Assembly: GCF_022829445.1 (NCBI RefSeq)
Contig: NZ_JAKSXY010000020.1
Span: 1-44,356, forward strand
Direction of reading: 5' to 3'
Origin: Methylobacterium sp. J-068
GTDB lineage: Bacteria; Pseudomonadota; Alphaproteobacteria; Rhizobiales; Beijerinckiaceae
Length of the DNA stretch: 44,356 nucleotides
Shown here: one piece after another, positions 1 through 14,971 of the stretch
How the letters are laid out: each line of letters opens with the position of its first letter
How positions within the stretch are numbered: the first letter of the stretch is position 1
Position numbers and translations under genes: made by a program
Notes under the pieces: model-generated
What the model was told of the DNA's origin: nothing
Databases searched by the model: none
What the model saw: only the letters and a program-made list of their open reading frames with translations

Positions 1-760
1 GCCTCGCGGGCGAACAGCGCTAGCAGGCGCTCGAAGAGCGGCTTGGAGACGCCGTTGCCGACGTACCAATGGCTCTCGCCGGTGGCCGGCGCCACGAAGG
101 CGGTGACGTAGAGCCACTCGTAGCGATGATGGCCGAGCGCGACCGGCCTCTGTCCGCGCGGAGCCCAGACCCGGCGGATGACCGGCTTCAGCCCGATGCG
201 GTGCTCGTCCGTGCAGAAGACCGAGACCGGGCGCCCGGGATGGCGCGCTTCTTCCTCGGCGAGGGTGTCGGCGAGTTTTTTTTGAAGGCGGCTTGTTCTT
301 CGGGGCTGGCTGCGGCCGGGTTCTTGGGACGTGGCGCCTGGATCGACCAGTCGAGCGCCTGCAGCGCGTCCCAGGCGCGTTGCGGGTAGACCGAGGCGAG
401 GCCAAGGTCGGCTGCCATCCAGGTGGCGATCTTGGTCGTGGTCCAAGCCCCGCCATCGGGCGGCGGTGTCTCCAGACGCGTGCGCAAGCGATCCAGAAGC
501 TCGGGGGTCAGAAGGCGGGCGGTTGCGCCGTTGCGGCGGCGGCGGTCGCCCAATGTGTCGGGCCCGAACTGGTTGTAGCGGCGGGCCAGTTGCTCCAGCC
601 AGCGCGATACGAAACCGGTCACGGCGGCGACATCCGGCACCGTCTGTCCCTGGGCCAGAAGCCAAATCGCCTGATAGTGACGCGCCGCGCAGGCGTCTGC
701 GCTCGTGCGAGCCCGCCGGCCCAGCTCCTCGACGCTCAGATGGTCGGCGATGTGTGCCAT
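1..760 (-). CDS. IS630-family transposase in two overlapping frames (A8 frameshift site), partial
   Basis: The first frame starts at ATG 760 and has an N-terminal helix-turn-helix region (about residues 20-130). It stops at 188 with an unrelated Arg/Ser-rich tail. At 276-283 the coding strand has eight consecutive A; slipping by one base (-1) continues into an open frame to the window edge. That frame carries FCTDEHRIGLKP, the first Asp region of the DDE domain, followed by RGQRPVALGHHRYEWLY, typical of IS630. This fits either a programmed -1 frameshift/transcriptional slippage, known in some IS630 members, or a disabling mutation; the A8 run and intact downstream frame favour programmed expression. 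The later catalytic Asp and Glu are outside the window. Confidence 0.8.
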
Positions 761-844
761 GCCTGCCTCCGCAAGACGATGCGGAGGCTAAACCCAATTC
801 CCCTCAACGGGAATCCGTCCCGAATCAATCAGCCGGAAACGGTA
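1..844 (-). mobile_element. IS630-family insertion sequence, left part outside window
   Basis: The transposase reading minus-strand from 760 off the left edge and about 80 bp of terminal sequence form one element. It lies inside the IS3 element: the IS3 OrfB reading frame is lost at about 843-850. A TA dinucleotide at 843-844, the usual IS630 target, marks the likely junction. The exact inverted repeat cannot be verified because the other end is outside the window. Confidence 0.75.
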
Positions 845-1443
845 TCACTCGTGTATTGCGAGCCCTGGTCCGAGTGATGCAGCAAGGCATCCGGCTTTCC
901 TCTGCGCCAGATCGCCATGACGAGCGCATCCGTGACGAGTTGAGCCGTCATGCTGGTTTGCATCGACCAGCCCACGACACGGCGTGAGAACAGATCGATG
1001 ACGGCGGCGACGTAGAGCCAGCCCTCGGCGGTCCAGATATACGTGAAGTCGGCGATCCACTTCCGATTCGGGGCGTCGGCCGCAAACCGCCGATCCAGAA
1101 GATTGGGCGAGGCGGTCGCCCGCTCTCCCTCGTCCTTCGGCAGGCCACGTCGGCGTGGCCGTGCCCGCAGGGCGTTCTCGCGCATGATCCGCTCGATGCG
1201 GTGCAGCCCGCACGAGACGCCCTCAGCCAGCACGTCATGCCAGACGCGCCTTGCGCCGTAGGTGCGGTCGCTGGCCACGAAGCTCGCGCGGGCCTTGACC
1301 AGGATGGCGTCGTCGTCCCGCGCGCGTTGGCTGGGCTGCCGGGTGAACCAAGCGTGGAAGCCGGAGCGCGACACGCCCAGCGCAGCGCACATCCAGGCAA
1401 CCGGCCAGACAGCGCGATGCTTTGCGATGAACGCGAACTTCAT
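829..1443 (-). pseudogene. IS3-family transposase OrfB, truncated
   Basis: This is the catalytic DDE part of an IS3 transposase. The N-terminal HTH_21-like region is at about residues 1-60, and the rve integrase core follows, with the first Asp in RKWIADFTYIWT and the second region in HHSDQGSQYTS. After that motif the frame reads five unrelated residues and stops. About 80-90 residues, including the catalytic Glu, are missing compared with a normal protein of about 280 residues. The break coincides with the IS630 junction, so disruption is by insertion. The start overlaps the OrfA stop (ATGA). Confidence 0.88.
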
Positions 1444-1785
1444 ATCGCGTCCCTCGCAAAGTAGGCGGCGGCTTTTTTTAGGATGTCACGCTCCGCCTTC
1501 AGACGAGCGACCTCCTTGCGCAGCCGGTCGATCTCGATCTGCTCGGGCTTCATCTGCCCCTGACCGGGAAAGGCGTGCTGCGGATCGGCCGCCGCCTGCT
1601 TCATCCACCGGTGCAGCATCGTCTCGTGAACATCGAGATCGCGCGCGGGCTGCGCGACACTGACACCACGTTCCCGAACCAGTCGAACCGCCTCGATCTT
1701 GAACTCACGTCCGAACTTGCGACGCTGCATGGAGCACCTCAGGCTTCACCATCACACCTCAACCGGGTGTCCGTGAAACTGGCAG
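845..1785 (-). mobile_element. IS3-family insertion sequence, 3' end disrupted by IS630
   Basis: OrfA (1440-1730) and the first part of OrfB (to about 845) are present; the C-terminal third of OrfB is missing because IS630 entered there. The upstream end lies about 50 bp before OrfA, around 1775-1790, but I could not match it to a partner inverted repeat, so the boundary is approximate. Confidence 0.7.
1440..1730 (-). CDS. IS3-family transposase OrfA
   Basis: The 96-residue protein is a DNA-binding OrfA: a helix-turn-helix (about residues 5-45, REFKIEAVRLVRERGVSVA) followed by a leucine-zipper-like coiled coil (about 60-90, EIDRLRKEVARLKAERDILKK). Its last codons contain an A7G run at 1471-1478, the classic IS3 -1 frameshift site that would fuse OrfA to OrfB into the active transposase. 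OrfA itself is intact, but no functional OrfAB can be made because OrfB is truncated. Confidence 0.9.
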   Translation of the reverse strand: MQRRKFGREFKIEAVRLVRERGVSVAQPARDLDVHETMLHRWMKQAAADPQHAFPGQGQMKPEQIEIDRLRKEVARLKAERDILKKAAAYFARDAI

Positions 1786-2147: not shown

Positions 2148-4268
2148 CTAAGCTGACGCTTGCGCTGCAAAATGATAAGTAGCGTTGGCGTGCATCACGG
2201 TCGCGGGGCGGTGCGCGACGATCACGCGGGTCATGCGCAGGTCCCGCAGGGCGGTCGCGATGGCGGCCTCCGTGGGCTCGTCGAGGTGGCTCGTCGCCTC
2301 GTCCAGGAACAGGATCTCGGGTCGTCGGTAGAGCGCGCGGGCCAGGATCACGCGCTGCTTCTGCCCCCCCGACAGGGTGGAGCCCATGTCGCCGACCAAA
2401 GTCTCGAACCCCATCGGCGTCCGGCGGATGTCGTCGAGAACCGCGGCACGTGCCGCGCATTCCTCGATCCAGCCCGGATCGGGCCGCTCGTCGAAACAGG
2501 CGATGTTCTCGGCGATCGATCCCGCGAACAGGCCATCGTTCTGCATGACACCGGCGATGCGCCGGCGATAGGCCGCCGAGCCGAGGGTGCGGAGGTCCTG
2601 GCCGTCGATCAGCACGCTGCCCTCGGTGGCCGGCAGCAGACCCATCATCACCTTCATCAGGCTCGACTTGCCGCAGCCCGACGGTCCCGTGATCGCGAAG
2701 CTCGATCCGGCGGCGATATCGAGGGCGAGATCGCGGAAAATCCACGGCTCGTCGCTGCCGTAGCGCAGGGCGAGGCCCCGCACCGCGATGCTGCCGGCGG
2801 CCCCCCCGGCCCCGACGACGGCCGGACTCGGCACCGACGGCGCGAGCGTGAAAGCCTGCTCCTCGGGCTCGCTCATCACGATGTCCGACAGGCGATCGGT
2901 CTGGACGTTGAGCATCCGCAGCTGGAAGCCCGACTGGATGAGGTTGCCGATCCGCTGCGAGAACTGGTCGCGGTAGGCGAGGAAGGCCACCAGCATGCCC
3001 AGAGTCATCGACTGGTCGATCACCGCTCGCGCGCCGAGGACGAGGAGCAGGAGGCGGTCGATCCCGAACAGCAACTCGTTGGCCCGCCCGAAGACGAGGT
3101 CGAGGCGCTGCAGGCGCAGGCGCGCGTTCACCGAGGTGACGAAGTGGTTCATCCAGGTACCGTTGCGGCGCTCGCGCAGGTCGAGGAGCTTCACGCTGGC
3201 CATGCCGCGCACGGTCTCGATGAAATGCGACTGCTGGCGCGCCTCCGCGACGATCGCCTCCTCGGTCCCCTCCCGGTAGGAGCCGTAGGCGAAGATCCGC
3301 AGGATCGCGGTCAGGACTGTCGAGGCGACGACGACGAGCGCGAGCCATCCTCCGTAGACCACCAGCATGGCGAGCATGCCCACCGACATGATCCCGTCGA
3401 GGATCGCCTGCACGAGGTCCGTCGTGATCCCCTTCTGGATCGTGGCGAGCGACCCGAAGCGCGAGATCACGTCGCCGACGTGGCGCTTCTCGAAATAATC
3501 GAGCGGCAGCCGCGAGAGATGTCCGAACAGGCTCCCGGACCATTGCAGGTTCAACTTCGTGCCTGTGAGCATGATCGCCCAGGTTCGAGCCACCGAGAGC
3601 ACCAGCTGGACCACGAGCAGGAGCGCCAGTCCCACCGCCACCACGAGAAGGAGGTCGAGGTCGGCGTTGACGATGACCTCGTCGATGACGATCTGCGAGG
3701 CGATCGGCATCAGGATCGCGACGAGTTCGATCCCGAGGGAGAGGGCGAGGATCTGGGCCAGGGCCGGACGGATGCCGCCGATGGTGCGGAAGAGGTCCCG
3801 CAGGGCGAGCCCGCGCTGGCGCGTCTCGCGGACGAAGCTCGTCGTCGGGCTCGTCTCCAGGGCGACGCCCGTAAACTCCCGCGACGCCTCCGCCAGGGGG
3901 AGCCGGCGCCGGCCGCGTGCCGGGTCGTGGATGGTGATGCCGTTCGCCCGGACGGCCGTCAGCACCACGAAGTGGTTGAGGCCCCAGTGCAGGATGCACG
4001 GCAGCTTCAGGCGCGGCAGGTCCTTGAGCTCGACCCGCAGGGCCCGGGTCGCCAAGCCCATCGTACCGGCGAGGTCGATGAGATTGCGCAGGGTCATGCC
4101 CTTGAGGGACAGGGCGTGCCGCCGCCGCATGGTCCCGAGATCGACGTGGCGACCATGGTAGCCGAGGACCATGCCGAGGCAGGCCATGCCGCATTCCGCC
4201 GCCTCCGCCTGGAGCAGGACGGGCGCACGCCGGCCGAAGCCGAAATGAAGGTTGGTCAGGAGACTCAC
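2148..4268 (-). CDS. Peptidase C39-containing ABC transporter (bacteriocin/microcin exporter)
   Basis: The 706-residue protein is a full peptidase-containing ABC transporter (CvaB/PCAT type). It cuts double-glycine leaders on the cytoplasmic side and exports the core peptide. An N-terminal C39 domain (about 1-140) has the catalytic Cys26 in AAECGMACLG, the His in LNHFVVL (about residue 102) and the Asp in IHDPARG. The membrane domain spans about 165-440. The nucleotide-binding domain has Walker A GPSGCGKSS (Lys534), signature LSGGQ (632-636) and Walker B LFLDEATSHLD (Asp656, Glu657), so protease and ATPase both look intact. Its start is 4 bp after the HlyD-like gene, so they are co-transcribed. 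The two GG-leader peptides upstream are the obvious substrates. Assignment is strong; substrate pairing is inferred from position. Confidence 0.93.
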   Translation of the reverse strand: MSLLTNLHFGFGRRAPVLLQAEAAECGMACLGMVLGYHGRHVDLGTMRRRHALSLKGMTLRNLIDLAGTMGLATRALRVELKDLPRLKLPCILHWGLNHFVVLTAVRANGITIHDPARGRRRLPLAEASREFTGVALETSPTTSFVRETRQRGLALRDLFRTIGGIRPALAQILALSLGIELVAILMPIASQIVIDEVIVNADLDLLLVVAVGLALLLVVQLVLSVARTWAIMLTGTKLNLQWSGSLFGHLSRLPLDYFEKRHVGDVISRFGSLATIQKGITTDLVQAILDGIMSVGMLAMLVVYGGWLALVVVASTVLTAILRIFAYGSYREGTEEAIVAEARQQSHFIETVRGMASVKLLDLRERRNGTWMNHFVTSVNARLRLQRLDLVFGRANELLFGIDRLLLLVLGARAVIDQSMTLGMLVAFLAYRDQFSQRIGNLIQSGFQLRMLNVQTDRLSDIVMSEPEEQAFTLAPSVPSPAVVGAGGAAGSIAVRGLALRYGSDEPWIFRDLALDIAAGSSFAITGPSGCGKSSLMKVMMGLLPATEGSVLIDGQDLRTLGSAAYRRRIAGVMQNDGLFAGSIAENIACFDERPDPGWIEECAARAAVLDDIRRTPMGFETLVGDMGSTLSGGQKQRVILARALYRRPEILFLDEATSHLDEPTEAAIATALRDLRMTRVIVAHRPATVMHANATYHFAAQASA

Positions 4269-4272
4269 GCGT

Positions 4273-5550
4273 TCATTGGCCCCGGGTCACGAGATCGACG
4301 CTGCGCTTGACCCGGTACAGGGGATCCAGGAGCCATCGGTAGAGCGGGCGCTGCTCGAGGGCGATATCGGCCTCCACGCGCATGCCCGCCTCGAGGCGGC
4401 GCTTCTCGCCGTAGGCAAGGACCGCATCCTCGTCCGGGCGGACGATGATGCGGTAGATCCCGTCGCCGCTCTTGGCCTTGCCGCCGGCGGGCTCCGGCGC
4501 ATCCGCGGCCTCCAGGGGGGCGCGGGTCACCTCCGAGACGGTTCCGCGATAGAGGCCGAAGCGCTGGAACGGGAACGCGGCGTAGCGGAGCATCACCGGC
4601 TCCCCGGTGTCGATGAAGCCGATGGCCGAGGATTCGACGAACAGGTTGGCCTGGAGGCGCCCCTCGCTCGGCAGCAGCGTCAGCAGCGTCGCGCCTGCCG
4701 ACACGCTCTGGCCGGCCTGGACGCGGATGGAGGTGAGGATCCCGCTCTCGGGCGCCCGCACCTCGATGCCGCGGCGTGCCTCGCTCTCGGCCCGCTGCTG
4801 TTCGAGCTGGGCGGCGGTGCGGTCCATCTCGGCGAGGTCCCGGGCGAGTTTGTCGTCGAAGGTGGCAAGCGTCGAGCGCAGTTCCCCGACCTTGCCCATG
4901 AGCTGGAGGTTGGAGTTCCGGAACTGGGCGAGCTGCGAGCTGGCCTGCAGGTAGAGGTAGTTCTGGTTCTGCAGGTCGGCGGACCGCGCGAACCCGTCGC
5001 CGACGGCCTTGGCCAGAACGTCGACGCGCTCCTTCAGCGGCGGCACCAGCTTTTCCTGAAGGCTCACCTGCTCCTCGAGCTGGCGCGACTGGGATTGCAA
5101 GTTGTCGATCTGCTCGGCGAGCGAACGCTTTTCAGTCTCGGACATGCTCGCGCGCAACGCCGCCTGAGTCTCGATGCTCGCCTTCTGCCGTGCGAGCTGG
5201 TCGATGATGCGCTGCTGGGTCGGACCGTTGGCGGAGACCGCGTCGAGATCCAGCGTGTAGAGGAGCTGCCCGCGCCGGACCTTGTCGCCCTCTTTGACCG
5301 CCGAACTGCTGACCCGGCCCGCCACGGGACTCGCCACCGTCATCAGGCCGACGTCGGGGGTCAACATCCCGTAAGCGTGCACGCGCCGCGTGTAGGTGCC
5401 GAGCCCGACGAAGAGGAGCGTCGCGATGATCATCAGCGCAGTCAATCCGGTCACCGTGCGGACCGAGACGGGCTGAACGATCTGGGCTTCTCCGAGCCAG
5501 GAATCTTTGCGTGCCTGAGCGACCTCGGCGCGAAACAACGGTGTCGTCAT
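4273..5550 (-). CDS. HlyD-family periplasmic adaptor of peptide exporter
   Basis: This membrane-fusion protein (425 residues) would link the inner-membrane ABC transporter to an outer-membrane TolC channel. It has one membrane anchor (about residues 32-52, TGLTALMIIATLLFVGLG), a biotinyl-lipoyl half-motif (ASPVAGRVSSSAVKEGDKV), a long coiled-coil hairpin (about 110-245) and the return lipoyl/beta-barrel strands (RAPESGILTSIRVQAGQSV). I chose ATG 5550. The frame stays open to 5685, but that extension reads straight through the dispersed hairpin repeat at 5608-5691 and has no family similarity. It precedes the transporter by 4 bp. No TolC gene is in the window, so a general TolC elsewhere is presumed. 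Confidence 0.92.
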   Translation of the reverse strand: MTTPLFRAEVAQARKDSWLGEAQIVQPVSVRTVTGLTALMIIATLLFVGLGTYTRRVHAYGMLTPDVGLMTVASPVAGRVSSSAVKEGDKVRRGQLLYTLDLDAVSANGPTQQRIIDQLARQKASIETQAALRASMSETEKRSLAEQIDNLQSQSRQLEEQVSLQEKLVPPLKERVDVLAKAVGDGFARSADLQNQNYLYLQASSQLAQFRNSNLQLMGKVGELRSTLATFDDKLARDLAEMDRTAAQLEQQRAESEARRGIEVRAPESGILTSIRVQAGQSVSAGATLLTLLPSEGRLQANLFVESSAIGFIDTGEPVMLRYAAFPFQRFGLYRGTVSEVTRAPLEAADAPEPAGGKAKSGDGIYRIIVRPDEDAVLAYGEKRRLEAGMRVEADIALEQRPLYRWLLDPLYRVKRSVDLVTRGQ

Positions 5551-5607
5551 CGACGGTGGCGTTTCTCCGTGCCGCGCCTTGCGATCGATTTTTGGGGGCG
5601 ACGTCTC

Positions 5608-5691
5608 AGTGTCTCTCACAAAACTCCCGCTGCGCCGCTGTGCCCAAAGTGAGGATCGGCGGTGGTCGGGAGTTTTGTGCGGCACTCTAAA
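5608..5691. repeat. 84-bp dispersed hairpin repeat, copy 1
   Basis: The sequence from AGTGTCTCTCACAAAACT to GGCACTCTAAA is nearly the same as 29988-30071, with 6 differences in 84 positions. The ends form a stem: CACAAAACTCCCG pairs perfectly with CGGGAGTTTTGTG. In copy 2 the same stem is kept by a paired change (C-G to T-A). It lies between the peptide genes and the HlyD-like gene, so it will be transcribed in that operon. It looks like a MITE or REP-type element; no encoded protein. Confidence 0.85.
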
Positions 5692-5697
5692 CCGAAG

Positions 5698-5730
5698 TCA
5701 GCGGCAAGCCCACGGGGAGCTTGCCGCTGA
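5698..5730 (-). terminator. Strong hairpin between peptide gene and HlyD gene (attenuator-like)
   Basis: TCAGCGGCAAG (5698-5708) and CTTGCCGCTGA (5720-5730) form a perfect 11-bp stem with an 11-nt loop, 50 bp after the stop of the second peptide gene. The minus-strand sequence after it (TTCGGTTTAG) has only a weak T run, so partial termination or mRNA-end protection is more likely than full termination. This would allow more peptide than transporter message from one promoter. Confidence 0.55.
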
Positions 5731-5779
5731 TGGTTGGATCGAGTCTGCCGCCGGACGTCAACCAGACGGCGACACGCTC

Positions 5780-5989
5780 TTACTTGCCGCCCAGGAGGCC
5801 ACCGACCGCACCGAGCAGGCCGCCGACCAGACCGCTCACGAGACCGCCGACTTGCCCGACCACGCCGGAAACGGCGCCCAGCTCACTGGAGAGGTCGAGA
5901 TCGAGGCCGAGGCCCAGGGACAGGCCGCCGCCCACGGCGTCGAGTTCCGTCGCGTTGAGCTCGCGAATGGTGTCATGGTTCTGAGTCAT
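5780..5989 (-). CDS. Double-glycine-leader bacteriocin-like peptide, copy 1
   Basis: A 69-residue precursor. The leader (residues 1-21) fits the GG-type signal, with IRELNATELDAVGG and cleavage expected after Gly20-Gly21. The core of about 48 residues has no Cys, is very rich in Gly, Leu and Val, and has repeated small-residue spacings (GAVSGVVGQVGGLVSGLVGG) that favour helix packing in membranes, as in class II bacteriocins. It ends in GLLGGK. A good ribosome site (GGAGA, 5996-6000) precedes the ATG. It lies just upstream of the C39 exporter genes. Antimicrobial activity is inferred; a signal or surface peptide is also possible. No immunity gene is recognisable nearby. Confidence 0.85.
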   Translation of the reverse strand: MTQNHDTIRELNATELDAVGGGLSLGLGLDLDLSSELGAVSGVVGQVGGLVSGLVGGLLGAVGGLLGGK

Positions 5990-6093
5990 GGTCGTTCTCC
6001 GATTGGGCCGATCTCAGCCAAGGATTCGGGTGTTCCGTCGCCACGGGGCCACGCGTTGAGAGGGGCCGGACTGCGCGACCCGGGCTAACTGAA

Positions 6094-6126
6094 TGCTGGG
6101 GCTCACTTGATGCTGGGGCTCACTTG
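6094..6126. repeat. 16-bp direct repeat at the end of peptide gene 2
   Basis: TGCTGGGGCTCACTTG occurs at 6094-6109 and again at 6111-6126, separated by one base. The second copy includes the stop codon and last codon of the peptide gene at 6120-6329; the first is a duplicated gene end in the spacer. It looks like a small recent tandem duplication. Confidence 0.8.
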
Positions 6127-6329
6127 CCGCCGAGCAAGCCGCCCACAGCACCGAGCAGGCCGCCGACCAAGCCGCTCACGAGGCCGCCGACTTGGCCGAC
6201 TACGCCAGAGACAGCACCAAGTTCGCTGGAGAGGTCGAGATTGAGGCCAAGTCCCAGGGACAGGCCACCGCCCACAGCGTCGAGTTCCGTCGCGTTAAGT
6301 TCGCGAATGGTGTCGATCTCCTTGGACAT
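6120..6329 (-). CDS. Double-glycine-leader bacteriocin-like peptide, copy 2
   Basis: A paralogue of the peptide at 5780-5989, also 69 residues. It differs only in residues 2-5 (SKEI instead of TQNH) and at residue 30 (Asn instead of Asp). The leader still ends in Gly20-Gly21 and the core is otherwise identical. I counted about 23 synonymous codon differences against one replacement over residues 6-69, so the duplication is not recent and the protein sequence is conserved. It is the first gene of the minus-strand set (peptide 2, peptide 1, HlyD, C39 ABC transporter) and has a ribosome site (GGAGA) at 6334-6338. Its third-codon bases are somewhat richer in A/T than copy 1. Confidence 0.85.
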   Translation of the reverse strand: MSKEIDTIRELNATELDAVGGGLSLGLGLNLDLSSELGAVSGVVGQVGGLVSGLVGGLLGAVGGLLGGK

Positions 6330-7736: not shown

Positions 7737-8084
7737 ACGTGGCGGGCGCTCGAGATGCCTGATCCGTCTCGTTGGGCCGAGCCGACAGGCGATGATGTCT
7801 TCTGCCGGACCGAGCGCATACGCCATACTCCGCCATGGACTGACACGACTCCTTTCAAGAACAGTAAGGATCCAACGCTCTGAGGAAGTCGGGCCGCTTC
7901 CGGAATGGTTGCTTGGGGTGGTTTTGCGACGATCCGCTTCCAATTGAGTTGTTGAGAAGCGGATGCTGGATGGCATCGGGCGAACCTTCGGAAGTGTTGA
8001 TCTGTAACCTTGTGGGCACACATCGTCGGAAAGCCTTTGGGCACCATTGACGGCGTACCGTTCGGTCTGGCCTCCTGGCGGTCG
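7737..8084. other. Intergenic leader upstream of riboswitch 1
   Basis: About 350 bp without a recognisable gene. It must contain the promoter for the cobalamin-uptake operon. A TTGACG at 8047-8052 could be a -35 element but has no convincing -10 partner. Nothing else was seen. Confidence 0.4.
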
Positions 8085-8256
8085 ACGGTTCCTCTCTGGA
8101 GGATCAAAAGGGAACGCAGTGAGGGCTTTCGCCCGATGCCGCGGCTGCCCCCGCAACTGTAAGCGGCGAGCCCATCATCAACACGTCACTGGCGGCCTCA
8201 AGCCTCTGGGAAGACGATGAGAGGGCGGTGACCCGCGAGCCAGGAGACCTGCCGTC
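8085..8256 (+). ncRNA. Cobalamin riboswitch 1 (aptamer)
   Basis: Conserved pieces of the AdoCbl-type aptamer occur in order: AAAGGGAACGCAGTG near the 5' end, GCCGCGGCTGCCCCCGCAAC followed by TGTAAGCGG, the TCACTGG segment, GGGAAGACGATGAG, and the B12 box GAGCCAGGAGACCTGCCG at about 8237-8254. It precedes a BtuB-like receptor gene by about 135 nt. High cobalamin should repress the operon. Confidence 0.95.
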
Positions 8257-8344
8257 AGTCGTGGTCACACGCGAAACGCATCGGGCGGGGTGTCCTGGTG
8301 GGTGTCGAGGCGTCCGGCTGTCCTCTTGGCAGACGAGCGCCCAG

Positions 8345-8384
8345 GCCTCGTTCGCGGTGACGTGCCACAGACGTCGCCCGAGGC
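8345..8384 (+). promoter_or_regulatory. Expression-platform hairpin hiding the ribosome site, riboswitch 1
   Basis: GCCTCG (8345-8350) pairs with CGAGGC (8379-8384), and inside it GGTGACG (8356-8362) pairs with CGTCGCC (8372-8378) with one G-U. The 3' strand contains GAGG, the only plausible Shine-Dalgarno before the ATG at 8392. The same hairpin occurs before the second riboswitch-controlled gene. Translational control is therefore likely. Confidence 0.7.
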
Positions 8385-8391
8385 TTGTCCC

Positions 8392-10371
8392 ATGTCCTTT
8401 CCCTCCCGATCCGCGTGCCTGCGCACGCTCGTGCTCGCCTGCGCCTCCCTTCCCGTATCCGCCCTGGCGCAACAGGCCGCCGCCCCCTTCGCCGATGTCC
8501 CGCGCGGGGCCGAGGCGGCCGTCACGCTCTCCGAGCTTTCCGTCTCCGCCACCGGCGTTCCGACCCCGGTCGACCAGGTCGGATCAAGCGTCACCGTGCT
8601 CACCGCCGCCACCCTGGAGGCCCAGCAGCGCCGCACCGTCCCGGATGCCCTCCAGCAGGTGCCGGGCCTCAACGTCGTGCAGACCGGCGGCCCGGGTGGC
8701 CAGACCTCGGTGTTCATCCGTGGCTCGAACTCGAACCATGTGAAAGTGCTCGTCGACGGAATCGACGCGACCGACCCGTCGAACCCGAACGGCTCCTTCG
8801 ACTTCGGGCAGCTCCTGACCGACGACCTCTCGCGTATCGAGGTGCTCAGGGGTCCCCAGAGCGGCCTCTACGGCAGCGACGCCATCGGCGGTGCGATCTC
8901 CTTCACGACAAAGCGTGGCGAGGGACCGGCCAGGGCGAGCGTGCGCATCGAGGGCGGCTCGTTCGGTACTTTCAACCAAAGCGGCAGGATCAGCGGGTCG
9001 GAGGACGGCTTCGACTATTCGGTCTCGATCCAGCACGTCCGTGCGGCCGCGACGCCGGTGACGCCGCCGAACCTCGTCCCGTTCGGCCGGGCGATCCATC
9101 CGAATTTTTACGATAACGAGACCGTCTCGGCGAAGTTCGGCTACCAGTTCACCGACACCTTCCGCATCAACTCGGTGACGCGCTTCATCAACTCGCGCCT
9201 GCTGTTCACCGGCACCGACTACAGCACCTTCCCGGCCTTCCCGGCGGCGTTCCGGAGTGCCGCCGACGTGCAGCAGGTATTCATCCGCAACGAGGCCGAA
9301 TGGACGCCGTTCGCCGGCTTCCACAACCTCTTCGCCGTCAACTACTCGAACCTGTTCAACCGGCAGCAGGGCCCCCTCGATCCGCTTGTGACGCCGGACG
9401 CGACGACGGGCTTGGGCGAGCGCACCCTCTACGAATACCGCGGCGACTATCAGATCTCGCCCGGCAACCTCGTCCTGTTCGGGGCGCAGCGCGATGACGA
9501 GAGCCTGTCGACCACCGACCCGAGCCCGTTCGGGGCCGGCAACCTGCGGGCGAGGAACGGCAATACCGCCGGCTACGCCGAGGCGCAGCTGACGCCGTTC
9601 GACCGGGCCTCGCTCATCGCCAACATCCGCCACGACGAGAACGACGCCTTTGGGCCGGCCACCACCTTCCGCGTCGCGCCGAGCTACATCCTGCCCTTCA
9701 CCGAGACCCGGATCAAAGGCAGCGTCGGCACCGGCTTCAAGGCGCCGACCTTGAGCCAGTTGTTCCAGAACTTCCCGGCGTCCAACTTCTTCGCCAACCC
9801 CAACCTCAAGCCGGAGGAGAGCCTCGGGTACGACGCCGGTATCGAGCAGCCGCTGGGGGATCGTATCCTCGTCGGCGCGACCTACTACGCCAACGACTTC
9901 AAGAATCTCATCACCGCGAACGCGACCTTCACCTCGAACGAGAACGTCGGCCGGGCCGCGTCGTACGGGGCGGAAGCCTTCGTCGCCGTCCGGTTCTCCG
10001 ATACTCTTACGGGCCGGGTCGACTATACCAACACGGTGACCAAGAACGAGATCACCAACCAGGAGCTCCTGCGCCGGCCCCGCCACAAGGGCAGCGCGAC
10101 AGCCTTCTGGACACCCCTCCCGGGCCTGACCGTCAGCGGCACCGTGATCGTGCTCGGCCACTTCGTCGACGGCAACCGAGACTTCTCGGTGGCCCGGCTC
10201 AAGAACCCGGGCTTCACCCTGGTCAATCTCGCGGTGAACTACGACGTCAGCGAGACGGTGAGCGTGTTCGGGCGGGTCGATAACCTGTTTGATCGTCGCT
10301 ACGAGAACCCCACCGGTTTTCTTGGCGCTGGCCTCGCCGTGTACGGCGGCGTCCGCCTGACCACGTTTTGA
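8392..10371 (+). CDS. btuB: TonB-dependent cobalamin receptor, BtuB-like
   Basis: An outer-membrane beta-barrel importer of 659 residues powered by TonB. It has a signal peptide (cleavage after about residue 26, SALA-QQ), a TonB-box-like stretch (TLSELSVSATG), a plug domain (VPDALQQVPGLNVVQTGGPG, then IEVLRGPQSGLYGSDAIGGAI) and a 22-strand-type barrel ending in Phe. The start at 8392 was chosen because the longer in-frame extension to 8290 overlaps the riboswitch leader, while 8392 opens a clean signal peptide just after the SD-hiding hairpin. A cobalamin riboswitch upstream and a BtuFCD-like ABC system directly downstream support cobalamin or another corrinoid as substrate. Confidence 0.9.
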   Translation: MSFPSRSACLRTLVLACASLPVSALAQQAAAPFADVPRGAEAAVTLSELSVSATGVPTPVDQVGSSVTVLTAATLEAQQRRTVPDALQQVPGLNVVQTGGPGGQTSVFIRGSNSNHVKVLVDGIDATDPSNPNGSFDFGQLLTDDLSRIEVLRGPQSGLYGSDAIGGAISFTTKRGEGPARASVRIEGGSFGTFNQSGRISGSEDGFDYSVSIQHVRAAATPVTPPNLVPFGRAIHPNFYDNETVSAKFGYQFTDTFRINSVTRFINSRLLFTGTDYSTFPAFPAAFRSAADVQQVFIRNEAEWTPFAGFHNLFAVNYSNLFNRQQGPLDPLVTPDATTGLGERTLYEYRGDYQISPGNLVLFGAQRDDESLSTTDPSPFGAGNLRARNGNTAGYAEAQLTPFDRASLIANIRHDENDAFGPATTFRVAPSYILPFTETRIKGSVGTGFKAPTLSQLFQNFPASNFFANPNLKPEESLGYDAGIEQPLGDRILVGATYYANDFKNLITANATFTSNENVGRAASYGAEAFVAVRFSDTLTGRVDYTNTVTKNEITNQELLRRPRHKGSATAFWTPLPGLTVSGTVIVLGHFVDGNRDFSVARLKNPGFTLVNLAVNYDVSETVSVFGRVDNLFDRRYENPTGFLGAGLAVYGGVRLTTF

Positions 10372-10379
10372 GACCGCCG

Positions 10380-11240
10380 ATGGCACGACGGTCCGGCTTC
10401 GCGGTCCTAACGGTGATGCTGGCGGTCAGCCAAACCTGGTCGATTGCCGGTGGGATGGCCGCCCCGGCGTCCGGAGGACTCCGGCACGTCGTCTCGATGA
10501 ACCTCTGCGCGGACGAACTTGTGCTCCGGCTTGCCGACCGCGATCAGGTTACCGCCGTGACCTACCTCGCCCACGACCCGCGCGGCTCGACCGTCGCGCG
10601 GGAGGCCGCCGGCATCGCGGTGACGCGCGGCCTGTCGGAGGAGATCGTTGCCCTCCGGCCCGACCTCGTCGTCGCCGGTGCCTTCACGACACGGACCACG
10701 GTGGGCCTGCTCAAGCGCGTCGGCTTCCCCCTCCTCGAACTCGGCGTACCCCACGACTTCGACGGGGTGCGGGCGCAGATTCGGACCGTCGCCGCGGCCC
10801 TCGGGCACCCGGCGCGCGGCGAGGCCATGGTCTCGGCCCTCGACGCGCGCCTGGCCGAGGTGGTGCCGGCGGCCAAGCCGCTCCGGGCCCTCGTCATGCG
10901 TCCGAACGCCTTCACGGTGGCCCCCGGCAGCCTTGGCGACGCGGTGATCCGCGCCGCCGGCCTCGTTAACGTCGCCGCCGAACTCGGCCGCGACCGCTTC
11001 GGGCAGGTCCCGCTGGAGGCCGCGGCCTTCGCCGATGCCGACCTGATCGTCCTCGATGAGGGGGAGCCCGGCAGGCCATCGCTCGCCGACGCCCTGCTGC
11101 ATCACCCCGTCCTCGACGCGCTGCGCCGGCAGGGGCGCACCGTCTCGATTCCGAACCGGCTCTGGACCTGTCCGGGTCCGCAGGTCGCCGAGGTCGTGGC
11201 CTTGCTCGCGGCAGCCGCGCGCGACAGGGCAACGCGATGA
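10380..11240 (+). CDS. btuF: Periplasmic cobalamin-binding protein, BtuF-like
   Basis: The ABC-importer binding protein (286 residues) is of the helical-backbone (TroA/BtuF) class. It has a signal peptide (about residues 1-28), then HVVSMNLCADELVLRLADRD, the usual opening of BtuF-type proteins, and EEIVALRPDLVVAGAF at the first lobe end. The start is ATG 10380; a TTG at 10368 that overlaps the btuB stop is the alternative. It overlaps the permease gene by 4 bp (ATGA), so the operon is tightly coupled. The substrate is inferred from riboswitch and receptor; siderophore binding proteins share the fold. Confidence 0.85.
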   Translation: MARRSGFAVLTVMLAVSQTWSIAGGMAAPASGGLRHVVSMNLCADELVLRLADRDQVTAVTYLAHDPRGSTVAREAAGIAVTRGLSEEIVALRPDLVVAGAFTTRTTVGLLKRVGFPLLELGVPHDFDGVRAQIRTVAAALGHPARGEAMVSALDARLAEVVPAAKPLRALVMRPNAFTVAPGSLGDAVIRAAGLVNVAAELGRDRFGQVPLEAAAFADADLIVLDEGEPGRPSLADALLHHPVLDALRRQGRTVSIPNRLWTCPGPQVAEVVALLAAAARDRATR

Positions 11241-12271
11241 ACGCCCCCATGCGGGCGCCCGTCCGGATCGAAGGCCGCCCCCCTGGACGCCGGACCGTCA
11301 TCGGATGCCTCGCCCTGCTGGTCGTCCTGCTCACGGGCGCGTCCATCGCGGTCGGCTACGCCCCCTTCGACGTTCCCGCAGCGGCCGGCGACCTCCTTGC
11401 CGGACGGGCGACGCTGCCGGCCCTGGTGCTCTGGGAACTGCGCCTGCCGCGCGCCTTGCTCGGGGGTCTCGTCGGCTTCAGTCTCGGGCTGACCGGTGCG
11501 GCGATGCAGGGCTACCTCCGCAACCCCCTCGCCGATCCGGGCATCCTCGGCATCTCCTCGGCGGCGGCCCTCGGGGCCGTGGTGGTGTTCTACGGCGGGT
11601 TCGCGGCTTCGTTTGCCCTCGCCCTTCCTTTGGGCGGGATCGCCGGCGCCGCGCTGGCGGCGCTCGCCCTGAACCTCGTCGCCACCAGGGGCGGCACCAC
11701 GCTGGGATTGATCCTCGCCGGCGTCGCCCTGTCGAGCTTGGCCGGCGCCATGACGGCGCTGGCGCTCAACCTGTCGCCCAACCCCTACGCGGCCCTGGAG
11801 ATCGTGTTCTGGCTGATGGGGTCGCTCGCCGACCGCAGCATGGACCATGTCTGGCTTTGCCTGCCGCTGATGGCGGTGGGCTGGGGCCTGATGCTGTCCA
11901 CGGCTCGCGCGCTCGATGCCCTGACGCTGGGCGAGGACACGGCCGCGAGCCTCGGCTTCCATCTGGTCTCGGTCCGCCTGCGCCTCGTCACGGGCGCGGC
12001 ACTCGCCGTGGGCAGCGGCGTCGCCGTCAGCGGCGCCATCGGATTCGTCGGCCTCGTCGTGCCGCACCTCGTACGACCCCTGGTCGGCGCACGTCCCGGT
12101 GCCAGCCTGTGGCCGAGCGGACTGGCGGGGGCCGCGCTGGTACTCGCGGCGGATCTGGGCGTTCGTCTCTTGGCGACGCGCCCGGAACTCAAGCTCGGTG
12201 TGGTGACGGCGCTCGTTGGGGCACCGTTCCTGATCGTGCTCCTCCTGCGTGGGCGAGGGCGCGACGCATGA
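11237..12271 (+). CDS. btuC: Cobalamin ABC permease, FecCD/BtuC-like
   Basis: An inner-membrane permease of 344 residues with about ten predicted membrane helices. Family motifs include LRLPRALLGGLVGFSLGLTG, QGYLRNPLADPGILGISSAA and GAIGFVGLVVPHLVRPLVG. The ATGA overlap with btuF and another with btuD indicate one transcript. FecCD permeases serve siderophores, haem and cobalamin; the riboswitch points to cobalamin. Confidence 0.9.
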   Translation: MNAPMRAPVRIEGRPPGRRTVIGCLALLVVLLTGASIAVGYAPFDVPAAAGDLLAGRATLPALVLWELRLPRALLGGLVGFSLGLTGAAMQGYLRNPLADPGILGISSAAALGAVVVFYGGFAASFALALPLGGIAGAALAALALNLVATRGGTTLGLILAGVALSSLAGAMTALALNLSPNPYAALEIVFWLMGSLADRSMDHVWLCLPLMAVGWGLMLSTARALDALTLGEDTAASLGFHLVSVRLRLVTGAALAVGSGVAVSGAIGFVGLVVPHLVRPLVGARPGASLWPSGLAGAALVLAADLGVRLLATRPELKLGVVTALVGAPFLIVLLLRGRGRDA

Positions 12272-13086
12272 GCCTCGCGACCGCCGCCCTCGATGTCCGC
12301 CTCGGCGGCCGTGCCATCCTCTCGAATGTCAGCCTGTCCCTGGAACGCAGGGCCCTCGTCGGTCTGGTCGGTCCGAACGGCGCCGGCAAGACCACCCTCC
12401 TGCGTTCCCTCGCGGGCTTGGTCGCCCCGACCAAAGGCCGCGTGGATCTCGACGGTATGCCGCTCAAGGGCATTTCCCGCGACGCGCGCGCCAAGCGCAT
12501 CGCGGTCCTTTTCCAGGGCGCGGGGGCCGGTTGGCCGATGCAGGTGCGTGACCTCGTCGCTCTCGGGCGGCTACCGCATCGACGCGCGTTCGGTGGCCTC
12601 GATGCCGCCGATCACGCCGCCATAAATCGAGCGATGGCACGGACCGATGTCGCGCGCTTCGCCGAGCGGACCGAACCGACCCTATCCACAGGCGAGCGGA
12701 TGCGTGTGCTGCTGGCGCGGGCGCTTGCCGTCGAAGCGGAGTGGTTGTTGGCCGACGAACCGATCACCGCTCTCGACCCGGCCCACCAGCTCGACGCCAT
12801 GACGCTGTTGCGGAGCGTGGCCCTGGCCGGCACCGGCGTCGTCGCCGTCCTGCACGACCTCTCTCTCGCGGCCCGGTTCTGCGACCGGATCGTGGTCCTC
12901 GGCGAGGGACGTGTCGCCGCCGATGGACACCCGGACGTTGCGTTGAACGACCGGCTGCTTTCGGACGTCTTCGGCGTCACGGTGTGCCGTGGGGCCGGAC
13001 CGGACGGAACCGCCTATATCCTGCCCTGGAACCGTTCGGGGCCCCATACGGAGGAGATCGATGCAGCCTTCCCGAAACAGCCCTGA
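12268..13086 (+). CDS. btuD: Cobalamin ABC ATPase, BtuD-like
   Basis: The ATPase of the uptake system (272 residues). Walker A is GPNGAGKTT (residues 35-43), the signature is LSTGERMRVLLARALA and Walker B is WLLADEPITALD, with the switch His in VAVLHDLSLAARFCD. The signature reads LSTGE instead of LSGGQ, a variation seen in some FecE/BtuD-type ATPases. The start at 12268 overlaps the permease stop by 4 bp; the frame is open far upstream, but that part is the shadow of btuC. Its 3' end overlaps the next gene by 26 bp. Confidence 0.9.
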   Translation: MSLATAALDVRLGGRAILSNVSLSLERRALVGLVGPNGAGKTTLLRSLAGLVAPTKGRVDLDGMPLKGISRDARAKRIAVLFQGAGAGWPMQVRDLVALGRLPHRRAFGGLDAADHAAINRAMARTDVARFAERTEPTLSTGERMRVLLARALAVEAEWLLADEPITALDPAHQLDAMTLLRSVALAGTGVVAVLHDLSLAARFCDRIVVLGEGRVAADGHPDVALNDRLLSDVFGVTVCRGAGPDGTAYILPWNRSGPHTEEIDAAFPKQP

Positions 13087-14020
13087 TGCCACCGTCGCCC
13101 TTCTTCGCGGTGCGCTGGCCGATCCGACCACGGCCTGGAGCCTGGGCAGCTTCGGTGCGATCGCCGAGTTCATGCGCGATCCCGACGAACCCGTCGTGGC
13201 GCTGCCGGACGAGCGCCTGGGCCTTGCGACCGCGCGCGGGGCCATCGCCCTGACCCCGAGCTCCGACCTGCGGCCCATCGCCTACGAGACGGCCGTCTCG
13301 TCCGGCTGGAACCACGCGCTCGCGCTTTGCCTGCCGGAGGCGACCTGCGCGATGAACCGCAGGACCGTGGTGACGGAGCTTGGGCCCGACCGGAACGCCG
13401 CCCGGGTCGAGGATCGCGACGACATCCTGTTCGATCTCGGTCTTGGCCTTCTCGCGGTGGATGCCTGCGTGCGGGTACGCGATCCGGAGGCCGTCGAGCG
13501 GCTGCGGGCCGGCGTCGGCATGCCGCTGTTCGACCACGCCAATCCCATCGGGCCGCATCTCGTCGCCATGAGCCCGCACCGGGTGTTCCTGGCGCGGATC
13601 GGGCGCGTCGAGGTCTATGCCCCGATCCCCGGCCCCGGCGGCACCAGCCCGGAGGGGCCGCACACGCACGTGCTGCCGAAGCTCCTGCGCAGCGGTCGGA
13701 CCCATGCCGCCACGACGCCGATCCCGGCGGGCTGGGTCCCCTGCGGCGGCCTGCACCCGGCCCATCCCTACAAGGACATGATGGGCGAACGCATCGCCTT
13801 TGACGCCGGACGCTACGAAGCGTTCCAAGAGATGCTCGACCAGTGGGGTGATCCGGAACTCGTGGCGATCAAGCGCGGCGGGTCCGAGGCGCCCGGCGGC
13901 ACGGTGTCGACCCGCCACGCCCAGGGCGCACGCCGGGTCGCCGAGGCCCAGGCGCGTTACCTGCGCGGCGAGATCATCGAGGCCACGGCCGACGACGAGG
14001 ATGCGGAGGCGACAGCCTGA
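13061..14020 (+). CDS. Conserved protein of unknown function in cobalamin-uptake operon
   Basis: 319 residues, no signal peptide or membrane segment. I do not recognise the family. Visible features: a Cys in CLPEATCAMNRRTVVTELG, a well-ordered His/Gly-rich middle (GGTSPEGPHTHVLPKLL, then GLHPAHPYKDMMGE) that could bind a metal, and an acidic C-terminus (ATADDEDAEATA). The start ATG 13061 follows GGAGGAG (13051-13057) and lies inside the end of btuD, so it is translationally coupled. Its place between the ABC ATPase and a P-loop protein suggests a role in corrinoid or cobalt handling after uptake. That is inference only. Confidence 0.75.
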   Translation: MQPSRNSPDATVALLRGALADPTTAWSLGSFGAIAEFMRDPDEPVVALPDERLGLATARGAIALTPSSDLRPIAYETAVSSGWNHALALCLPEATCAMNRRTVVTELGPDRNAARVEDRDDILFDLGLGLLAVDACVRVRDPEAVERLRAGVGMPLFDHANPIGPHLVAMSPHRVFLARIGRVEVYAPIPGPGGTSPEGPHTHVLPKLLRSGRTHAATTPIPAGWVPCGGLHPAHPYKDMMGERIAFDAGRYEAFQEMLDQWGDPELVAIKRGGSEAPGGTVSTRHAQGARRVAEAQARYLRGEIIEATADDEDAEATA

Positions 14021-14022
14021 TC

Positions 14023-14577
14023 GTGACCCGGACGGCGCCCGGCAGAAATCGTCCGGGGGCGCCCCAAAGGGTGATCGGCCTGATCGGCTGCCCGGGCGCG
14101 GGGAAGACGACCTACGCCCGCCGCTTCGACCCCCTCGACGGTTGGGTCCACCTCACCCTCGACGATTTCCGTCAGGCCCTCTGGCCGCCGGACCGGCAGG
14201 TCTACTGGCAACTCAGGCAAGGCTCGCATGACGATGCGGCCCGGGACGTCCTGCACCGGGTCAAGGAAGCGGCCCTGGAGGCCGCCCTGGCGAGCGGCTT
14301 CAGCGTCGTGATGGCGGACACCCATCTCACCAGACCTGTGTTCGAGCGCGAGCTCGGGATCGTGGCCCGTCACGGGCTCACCGTGGAGTGGAAAGTGTTC
14401 GACGTGTCGTGGGAGGTCCTGAAGGCTCGCAACGCGGAGCGCGGTCGCGTGGACCCGTCGCATCGCCAGCCGGATGAGGTGCTCCGGTTCACCTACGAGG
14501 TATTCCGATCCCCGGACGCGTGGTGGCGTGACTTGCCGCCGGATCAGGTCGAGGTCCTGACCTACCGGACAGGATGA
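14023..14577 (+). CDS. P-loop kinase-like ATP-binding protein (AAA_33/polynucleotide-kinase type)
   Basis: A 184-residue P-loop protein. Walker A is GLIGCPGAGKTTYARRF, followed by LTLDDFRQALW, where the Asp pair matches the substrate-binding region of zeta-toxin/T4 polynucleotide kinase-like folds, and a lid-like segment RNAERGRVDPSHRQPDEVL. It begins with GTG 2 bp after the preceding stop, so it is the last gene of the cobalamin operon. The substrate is unknown; kinases of this type phosphorylate small molecules or nucleic-acid ends. Cobinamide kinase (CobU) is a different family, so I would not call it that. Confidence 0.75.
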   Translation: MTRTAPGRNRPGAPQRVIGLIGCPGAGKTTYARRFDPLDGWVHLTLDDFRQALWPPDRQVYWQLRQGSHDDAARDVLHRVKEAALEAALASGFSVVMADTHLTRPVFERELGIVARHGLTVEWKVFDVSWEVLKARNAERGRVDPSHRQPDEVLRFTYEVFRSPDAWWRDLPPDQVEVLTYRTG

Positions 14578-14589
14578 GCGATCCGTCTC

Positions 14590-14635
14590 ACCAAGTGTTG
14601 CGGGCCGGGCATAACCCTCGTGCATCGCACTTGGT
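14590..14635 (+). terminator. Inverted repeat after cobalamin operon (possible terminator)
   Basis: ACCAAGTG (14590-14597) and CACTTGGT (14628-14635) are perfect 8-bp complements with a 30-nt loop, 12 bp after the last operon stop. There is no T tract, so intrinsic termination is uncertain. Confidence 0.35.
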
Positions 14636-14638
14636 CCG

Positions 14639-14666
14639 TTGACGAGCATGGGCGTCGGCATGTTAC
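14639..14666 (+). promoter_or_regulatory. Candidate promoter for riboswitch 2
   Basis: TTGACG (14639-14644) and TGTTAC (14661-14666) are 16 bp apart and match an alphaproteobacterial housekeeping promoter reasonably. The expected transcription start at about 14672 is immediately before the aptamer. Confidence 0.5.
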
Positions 14667-14676
14667 CTCGGCCGTG

Positions 14677-14845
14677 ACGGTTCCTCCCTGGAGGATCAAA
14701 AGGGAACGCGGTGCGGGGGTAGCCCCAACGCCGCGGCTGCCCCCGCAACTGTAAGCGGCGAGCCCTTCGCCACCGACGTCACTGAGCGGCCTCGCTCGGG
14801 AAGACGGTGAAGGGCGGTGACCCGCGAGCCAGGAGACCTGCCGTC
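14677..14845 (+). ncRNA. Cobalamin riboswitch 2 (aptamer)
   Basis: All conserved segments of riboswitch 1 are repeated: AAAAGGGAACGCGGTG, CCGCGGCTGCCCCCGCAACT, TGTAAGCGG, TCACTGAGCGGCC, GGGAAGACGGTGA and the B12 box GAGCCAGGAGACCTGCCG (14826-14843). Variable arms differ from riboswitch 1, so the two are old duplicates or separate recruits. It precedes a siderophore-type TonB receptor gene. Confidence 0.95.
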
Positions 14846-14923
14846 AGTCGTGGTCACACGCGAGACACGCTGGGCGGGGTGCCCCGGCGGGTGTCGGGGC
14901 GTTCGCGTGTCGCGAACGGTTCG

Positions 14924-14963
14924 GCCTCGTTCGCGGTGACGTGCCACTGCCGTCGCCCGAGGC
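14924..14963 (+). promoter_or_regulatory. Expression-platform hairpin hiding the ribosome site, riboswitch 2
   Basis: GCCTCG...CGAGGC with inner GGTGACG...CGTCGCC, nearly identical to 8345-8384. GAGG in the 3' strand is the likely ribosome site for the GTG start at 14972. Confidence 0.7.
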
Positions 14964-14971
14964 CCATCAAC

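What the first reader, a model, noticed from the sequence alone, without database searches (positions are those of the whole stretch)
2148..6329. Candidate undescribed double-glycine peptide (microcin-like) system with dedicated C39 exporter
Seen: two Gly/Leu/Val-rich, Cys-free 69-residue precursors ending their leaders in Gly20-Gly21, followed by an HlyD adaptor and an intact C39-peptidase ABC transporter (Cys26, Walker A and B intact), all on one strand. Known: this combination exports class II bacteriocins and microcins. Inference: a Gram-negative membrane-active peptide system in a Methylobacterium-like host. The core, rich in small-residue GxxxG-type spacing and ending in GLLGGK, does not match any microcin I can name. 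No immunity protein and no TolC are nearby.
Basis: partly seen in the sequence, partly recalled or inferred. Interest (0 to 1): 0.9.

Follow-up and report, generated by a model that had tools for sequence, protein, structure and literature searches.

The report
Exported glycine-zipper surface peptides, no immunity
Two nearly identical small glycine-rich peptides lie beside the only C39 cut-and-export pump found in this Methylobacterium-type genome, and 43 of the 44 related genomes that have the pump's partner protein also have such a peptide; the peptides are likely exported and would act as a self-sticking cell-surface material rather than a poison, because no protective gene was found beside them.

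Summary
In detail: two 69-residue, Cys-free precursors, an HlyD adaptor and an intact C39-peptidase ABC exporter form one minus-strand cassette. One detail is off: leader spacing and relatives ending VAGG or VSGG put the cut after Gly22, not Gly21. The exporter is the only C39 protein found in the genome. Of 111 genus genomes, 43 have adaptor and peptide, one has only a distant (37%) adaptor, 67 have neither. The core is under purifying selection; it starts with an alternating, strand-like stretch and ends in a 32-residue uncharged glycine zipper. A strong hairpin usually ends the peptide unit. No convincing immunity gene recurs in 53 loci. By published sequence criteria the peptides are Cdz-like. 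The missing immunity gene, the conserved core and largely vertical inheritance lean towards an EbfG-like surface or matrix role; that last step is inferred, and contact killing is the main rival. Some relatives are already named 'bacteriocin' by automatic annotation, and a 2014 genome paper mentions a bacteriocin with transporter in M. oryzae. It is a new, unnamed family of a known kind.

The parts
6120..6329 (-). Peptide precursor B, 69 aa. Predicted leader = residues 1-22 (6264-6329), mature core = residues 23-69 (6123-6263), monoisotopic 4228.40 Da if cut after Gly22
   Evidence: family match in 43 of 111 genus genomes
5780..5989 (-). Peptide precursor A, 69 aa, tandem duplicate of B (core differs only by D30N). 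Predicted leader 5924-5989, core 5783-5923, monoisotopic 4229.39 Da if cut after Gly22
5698..5730 (-). Hairpin (14 pairs, loop 5) between peptide A and HlyD: likely terminator/attenuator or processing site separating peptide and exporter expression (inferred)
   Evidence: stem of at least 10 pairs within 110 nt after the stop in 38 of 52 peptide genes, mean 12.3 against 6.6 shuffled. The terminator scan as a whole found fewer sites (2) than its shuffles (mean 3.0)
5608..5688 (-). Second imperfect inverted repeat (22-nt arms, 82%) before HlyD; meaning unknown
4273..5550 (-). HlyD-type periplasmic adaptor (membrane fusion protein); ORF open from GTG 5685 but homology supports ATG 5550
2148..4268 (-). 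C39-peptidase ABC exporter, 706 aa, catalytic and ATPase motifs intact; its start lies just before the HlyD stop codon region (overlap)
   Evidence: only C39 peptidase found in the genome
6810..7736 (+). AraC-family regulator, divergent from the peptides; an AraC-type match lies on this side in 20 of 31 relatives, 13 of these at under 50% identity; likely regulator, inferred from position only

Best explanation
The cassette encodes two near-identical double-glycine precursors and an intact C39 exporter that is predicted to cut them after Gly22 and push the 47-residue cores out, where they would likely stay on the producer's surface and self-assemble as an adhesive or matrix material rather than kill. 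Shown: precursors, exporter, co-occurrence, purifying selection, uncharged glycine zipper, alternating N-terminal stretch, no convincing recurrent linked immunity gene. Predicted from family knowledge: leader recognition, cleavage by Cys26, passage through HlyD and one of the unlinked TolC-type channels. Inferred and untested: surface retention, self-assembly through the alternating stretch and the GxxxG zipper, a role in aggregation or attachment (as for EbfG proteins of Synechococcus), control by the AraC-type protein, and a higher peptide than exporter dose set by the hairpin.
For: Export: only C39 protein found in the genome; 43 of 44 genus genomes with an adaptor at E<=1e-60 have the peptide, 0 of the 67 others do, and in 42 of the 43 peptide and adaptor are on one contig within about 1.5 kb; linked also in 10 of 11 stretches fetched from other genera. 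Leader: L11, E15, L16, V19, G21, G22 invariant in 33 sequences. Non-toxin role: no convincing small membrane protein recurs in 53 loci; core dN/dS 0-0.32 in 19 relative pairs; the core motif AVSGxxxQxGxLV persists where the adaptor is only 34-36% identical; presence needs 14 changes on a recA tree against 31.8 shuffled, 0 of 500 as low; HlyD and recA distances correlate, r=0.78, 0 of 2000 permutations as high. Assembly: residues 37-68 have no charge and no Pro; GxxxG 8 against 4.2 shuffled, p about 0.012; alternation in the first 11 core residues 10.5 of 11 against 6.9 shuffled, mean of 33 related sequences. Precedent: EbfG1-4/PteB double-glycine proteins are needed for biofilm and some form amyloid (PMC4997328, PMC9981879, passages).
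Against: The same features fit Cdz-like killing: by the four criteria of PMC5380434 the window's peptides qualify, and that paper says most Cdz-like systems have a single toxin and that immunity genes were harder to find. An immunity gene may be unlinked. 7 of 33 relatives match the bacteriocin family PF10439 at E<=0.1 (best 1.8e-5) and 4 of 33 an E492-microcin model (best 0.011). The core is not generally more constrained than the leader: core dN is lower in the A-B comparison and in 5 of 19 relative pairs, higher in 13, equal in 1, and its C-terminus varies in length. No biofilm gene was seen linked. The AlphaFold model has helices at 13-21 and 33-68, no strand, at low confidence (mean pLDDT 62.9). 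Presence is patchy in the window's own recA clade (4 of 17), and transposase genes lie on one side of the cassette. GxxxG enrichment is weak in some relatives (p=0.115 in L017).
Confidence: 0.45

Rival explanations
1. A Cdz-like weapon: the glycine-zipper peptides are displayed on the producer and kill neighbours on contact by inserting into their membrane; immunity is unlinked or intrinsic.
For: Meets the length, leader, uninterrupted zipper, polar C-terminus and nearby type I exporter criteria of PMC5380434. That paper found most candidates with one toxin, immunity hard to identify, and frequent flanking transposases. Weak PF10439 and E492 hits in relatives. Transposase genes on one side of this cassette.
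Against: No CdzI-like membrane protein in the window and no convincing one recurrent in 53 loci. Core strongly conserved between species, which would leave related producers facing nearly their own peptide. Largely vertical pattern. The two copies share 46 of 47 core residues, so they are not a complementary pair; 31 of 43 genomes show one peptide hit.
Confidence: 0.33
2. A diffusible class II microcin-type bacteriocin.
For: Double-glycine leader, C39 exporter, HlyD; UniRef names such as 'Bacteriocin' for relatives; a 2014 genome paper calls such genes in M. oryzae a bacteriocin with transport system (PMC4161386, passage).
Against: No immunity gene found; the window's peptides reach no Pfam or NCBIfam cut-off; the 32-residue uncharged C-terminal stretch suggests poor solubility (inference).
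Confidence: 0.1
3. A secreted peptide signal read by the neighbouring AraC-type regulator or another receptor.
For: AraC-type match beside the peptides in 20 of 31 loci; some double-glycine peptides of Gram-positive bacteria are pheromones (recalled); weak BlpC-model hits in 8 of 33 (best 0.057).
Against: No AraC-type match found in 11 of 31 loci (some are cut by contig ends) and 13 of the 20 are under 50% identical; a hydrophobic 47-residue core is unlike known pheromones (recalled).
Confidence: 0.07

Closest known systems
Cdz system of Caulobacter (CdzABCDI; PMC5380434: abstract, passages and section 13 seen)
   Same: Small glycine-zipper peptides with leader ending in GG, type I ABC exporter plus adaptor, no linked TolC; meets the paper's four sequence criteria for Cdz-like proteins
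   Different: No CdzI-type immunity gene found; a duplicated single peptide type instead of two different required proteins; core conserved over genera; sequence similarity to CdzC/D not tested here
EbfG1-4 / PteB biofilm proteins of Synechococcus elongatus (PMC4997328 and PMC9981879, passages seen)
   Same: Several small GG-leader proteins exported by a C39 peptidase exporter; the word immunity does not occur in the 2016 paper's main text; self-assembling
   Different: Cyanobacterium; mature sequences compared in no call; biofilm role unproven here; no glycine zipper mentioned in the passages seen
Class II microcins / PF10439 double-glycine bacteriocins
   Same: Leader type and C39 exporter
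   Different: No immunity gene found; window peptides do not match PF10439; E492 microcin model only weak, 4 of 33 relatives
'Bacteriocin and accompanying transport system' of Methylobacterium oryzae (PMC4161386, passage seen)
   Same: Same genus, bacteriocin-named gene plus transport genes; M. fujisawaense (L035) carries the present cassette
   Different: Only named in one sentence in the passage seen; identity with this locus not checked

Membership tests
C39-exported double-glycine peptide systems | Leader with canonical L(-12) E(-8) L(-7) V(-4) G(-2) G(-1) | tested here: met
   L11, E15, L16, V19, G21, G22 invariant in 33 sequences; the signature itself is recalled
C39-exported double-glycine peptide systems | Linked exporter with intact C39 peptidase and ATPase | tested here: met
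C39-exported double-glycine peptide systems | Peptide actually cleaved and secreted | not testable with these tools
   needs mass spectrometry
Cdz-like systems (criteria of PMC5380434) | 60-151 residues, leader ending G[G/A/S] | tested here: met
   69 aa, GG
Cdz-like systems (criteria of PMC5380434) | Glycine zipper flanked, not interrupted, by Pro or charge; short polar C-terminus | tested here: met
   residues 37-68 without charge or Pro between E36 and K69, four overlapping GxxxGxxxG; some relatives lack the charged end, e.g. L025, L034
Cdz-like systems (criteria of PMC5380434) | Type I exporter within 10 kb | tested here: met
Cdz system proper | Small transmembrane immunity protein (CdzI) in the cluster | tested here: not met
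   no such ORF in the window's gaps, none convincing recurrent in 53 loci
Cdz system proper | Two different peptides in the cluster | tested here: not met
   two copies with 46 of 47 core residues identical; 31 of 43 genomes show one hit; whether both copies are needed is untestable here
Cdz system proper | Sequence relation to CdzC/CdzD | not tested
   their letters were not fetched
Cdz system proper | Contact-dependent killing | not testable with these tools
   needs co-culture
Class II microcin / PF10439 bacteriocin | Match to PF10439 | tested here: not met
   no hit for the window's two peptides at E<=1; 7 of 33 members of A1 at E<=0.1, best 1.8e-5
Class II microcin / PF10439 bacteriocin | Adjacent immunity gene | tested here: not met
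NHLP bacteriocin export | TIGR03796 exporter over cut-off | tested here: not met
   466.9 bits against 853.3
EbfG/PteB-type matrix proteins | Several small GG proteins linked to a C39 exporter | tested here: met
EbfG/PteB-type matrix proteins | Required for biofilm, amyloid or surface assembly | not testable with these tools
   only sequence proxies: alternation and zipper
EbfG/PteB-type matrix proteins | Sequence relation of the mature parts | not tested
   EbfG letters not fetched

The most novel reading that the evidence does not exclude
A family found across a genus and annotated, where at all, as 'bacteriocin' is not a weapon: it is an immunity-free, largely vertically inherited, C39-exported glycine-zipper peptide that coats methylotroph cells and builds their matrix, the alphaproteobacterial counterpart of the cyanobacterial EbfG proteins.
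Probability: 0.4. Interest if true: 0.7.

Novelty: new member of a known kind. Interest (0 to 1): 0.45.

Why it matters
Double-glycine peptides next to C39 exporters are routinely called bacteriocins. Here a family with a tight exporter link, a conserved core and no linked immunity gene found gives a clean genetic system in harmless leaf bacteria to ask whether such cassettes can be structural. If it kills instead, it would be a self-tolerant weapon without a linked immunity gene, which is also of interest.

Tried and rejected
Chance ORFs: rejected by synonymous-biased divergence and homologues. NHLP export: exporter far below cut-off. RiPP relation: 18 of 33 relatives hit the TigB model (best 9e-4), the window's two at 0.029 and 0.023 against a 70-bit cut-off; taken as Gly/Val composition. 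Structure: AlphaFold gave low-confidence helices, so no fold search was run. Linked immunity: ORFs of 24 aa or more in the gaps of the window and 22 of the 31 relatives, and all ORFs of 30 aa or more in 53 loci. The most widespread free ORF family occurred in 14 of 53 loci; it and the next ones look like flanking genes or their shadow frames. A 36-43-aa frame in 12 of 53 loci (best hydropathy 1.66) runs antisense to the peptide leader. A 64-aa frame just upstream of the peptide in 9 of 53 loci was tested in one pair of equal length: 8 nonsynonymous against 1 synonymous change, so not a protein. Twelve strongly hydrophobic ORFs lie at 9 loci; two of them (L124, L125) look alike but are about 4 kb from the peptide. 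Related exporters at 45-56% identity (L037-L040, L042): the leader scan found other GG peptides at L037 and L039; candidates at L040 and L042 were seen by eye; none at L038. Peptide without exporter: L128 (G212), a weak relative (E=4e-5), shows no exporter match in its 11-kb contig; L096 (G178) shows no adaptor in its 3-kb stretch. G379 has a 37% adaptor without a family peptide. The promoter scan gave nothing near the peptides. Papers: 'Methylobacterium' with 'double-glycine' and 'bacteriocin', with 'glycine zipper', and with 'peptidase C39' gave 0 papers. The papers cited came; PMC10790750 was opened and only cites a bacteriocin paper in its references.
Full report
Observation. Precursor B (6120-6329) and precursor A (5780-5989) are 69 aa each and Cys-free; they share 176 of 210 nt, differ at residues 2-5 and in one core residue, D30N. 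HlyD follows (4273 to 5550 or 5685), then the C39-ABC exporter (2148-4268), directly adjoining. Catalytic Gln20 and Cys26, the His and Asp motifs, both Walker motifs and the ABC signature are intact.

Cleavage site. The leader is ..TIRELNATELDAVGGG|LSLG... The canonical pattern of double-glycine leaders (recalled) has hydrophobic residues at -12, -7 and -4 and Glu at -8. It fits only if the last glycine is Gly22 (L11, E15, L16, V19). In the 33-sequence alignment these columns and G21 and G22 are invariant, while position 20 is G, A or S (VAGG in P0036, VSGG in P0052). The predicted cores are therefore 47 residues, not 48.

Link to the exporter. The genome shows one C39 peptidase and three OEP/TolC-type proteins on other contigs. 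Of 111 genomes of the genus, 44 have an adaptor at E<=1e-60 and 43 have the peptide at E<=1e-5. The 43 are among the 44; the extra one, G379, has a 37%-identical adaptor. None of the other 67 has a peptide match. By the coordinates, peptide and adaptor are on one contig within about 1.5 kb in 42 of 43; in G130 they are on two contigs. Of the 43, 31 show one peptide hit, 8 show two of the same type and 4 show a second, different type (types). Among 31 relatives with public names the type-1 peptide lies beside the exporter in 30; the other (L019) is cut by its contig end, and G130, whose contig has the same length, carries it on another contig. Wider: 30 of 298 family genomes match at E<=0.01, 24 of them at E<=1e-5; 12 of 397 order genomes match at E<=1e-4, 6 of them in another family. 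I fetched 11 longer stretches from other genera: in 10 (L117-L126) the peptide is again beside the exporter; in the 11th (L128, a weak relative) no exporter was found. In four of the ten the adaptor is only 34-36% and the exporter 52-53% identical, but the core is still recognisable.

Selection and inheritance. Between copies A and B the core has 19 synonymous and 2 nonsynonymous changes by Nei-Gojobori counting (dN 0.02, dS 0.65) and the leader has dN 0.13. Over 19 relative pairs the core dN/dS runs from 0 to 0.32. But the core is not generally more constrained than the leader: its dN is lower in 5 of the 19 pairs, higher in 13 and equal in 1. On a recA tree of 97 genomes (42 with, 55 without) presence needs 14 changes against a shuffled mean of 31.8, 0 of 500 as low; at least 8 changes are forced by well-supported branches. 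HlyD and recA distances correlate (r=0.78, n=42, 0 of 2000 permutations). So inheritance looks mostly vertical with repeated loss or transfer; in the window's own recA clade of 17, 4 have it.

Anatomy of the core. In the window residues 23-33 alternate strictly between hydrophobic and small or polar residues; over 33 sequences the first 11 core residues score 10.5 of 11 (range 9-11) against 6.9 when shuffled (the sequences are related, so p-values do not multiply). Residues 37-68 hold no charge and no proline. GxxxG pairs are 8 against 4.2 shuffled (p about 0.012) in both copies, but not significant in L017 (p=0.115) (seven sequences tested). AlphaFold with 33 sequences gives helices at 13-21 and 33-68 with mean pLDDT 62.9, too weak for a fold search and without a strand.

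Expression layout. GGAG precedes both peptide starts. After peptide A there is a 14-pair hairpin. In 52 peptide genes of the genus loci, 38 have a stem of 10 or more within 110 nt (mean 12.3 against 6.6 in mononucleotide shuffles); in the eight tandem pairs of the window's type the first gene has a stem of 5-8 and the second one of 12-15. This looks like a terminator or attenuator ending the peptide unit, inferred. An AraC-type regulator is divergent in the window; a match lies on the same side in 20 of 31 relatives, 13 of these at under 50% identity.

No immunity gene found. In the window no gap ORF of 24 aa or more has a convincing membrane segment. Over 43 genus loci and ten loci from other genera, 2094 ORFs of 30 aa or more outside the known genes were clustered. 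The commonest families (up to 14 of 53 loci) look like flanking genes and shadow frames; a 36-43-aa frame antisense to the leader (12 loci) and a 64-aa frame upstream of the peptide (9 loci) also recur, and the latter changes like non-coding DNA in the one pair tested. Twelve strongly hydrophobic ORFs lie at 9 loci without a common family. An unlinked immunity gene is not excluded.

Interpretation. Export and cleavage are well supported as a prediction. For function, three precedents exist. Class II microcins carry an immunity gene (recalled). Cdz kills on contact and has CdzI, but its authors report that most Cdz-like clusters have one toxin and that immunity was harder to find (PMC5380434, section 13). 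EbfG proteins are needed for biofilm and some form amyloid (PMC4997328, PMC9981879, passages). The absence of a found immunity gene, the core conserved over genera, the sticky architecture and the mostly vertical inheritance weigh towards the EbfG-like role; the Cdz criteria, weak bacteriocin-model hits and patchy presence in some clades weigh towards a weapon. I commit to the surface-material reading at 0.45, with the Cdz-like weapon at 0.33.

Novelty. The window's peptides reach no Pfam or NCBIfam cut-off. Some relatives are called 'Bacteriocin', 'Type A2 lantipeptide' or 'Pe-pgrs family protein' by sources. One passage of the M. oryzae genome paper mentions a bacteriocin with transport genes. 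Searches of the held library for Methylobacterium with double-glycine and bacteriocin, glycine zipper, or peptidase C39 found no paper. It is a new family of a known kind.

Noticed in passing
window 829-1730 (-) and 188-760 (-): Transposase genes (rve integrase core with HTH_21, HTH_Tnp_1) and a winged-helix ORF lie downstream of the exporter, the nearest about 400 bp away; similarity to L007 stops at window position 2000.
   Followed up: partly
window 8290-17080 (+): Two TonB-dependent receptors (8290-10371 and 14807-17080) with a periplasmic binding protein and a FecCD permease between them; looks like a metal-complex or vitamin uptake cluster.
   Followed up: no
L013 7150-7380, L016 7146-7364, L017 7224-7442, L019 40-270 (all -): A second, distinct and very conserved GG peptide type (QSELSVSVGGLNELIDTVHSIPAG...), between the type-1 peptide and the exporter in a few species; function unknown.
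   Followed up: partly
L163 2004-2198 (-) and relatives: A conserved stretch just upstream of the peptide in some Methylorubrum-type loci, readable as a 64-aa frame but changing like non-coding DNA in the one pair tested; perhaps a conserved promoter or 5' untranslated region.
   Followed up: partly
L037 7515-7865, L039 7507-7854, L040 11404-11844, L042 593-859: Exporters at 45-56% identity in Commensalibacter, Nitratireductor and a gammaproteobacterial MAG lie beside other GG-leader glycine-rich peptides of different sequence.
   Followed up: partly
L127 (G379), 7867-11258: A genus member has a divergent adaptor-exporter pair (37% and 49%) without a peptide of this family in the fetched 16 kb; its cargo is unknown.
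   Followed up: no
window 18568-20133 (-): RPE65-type (carotenoid oxygenase family) gene, Pfam 6.8e-107.
   Followed up: no
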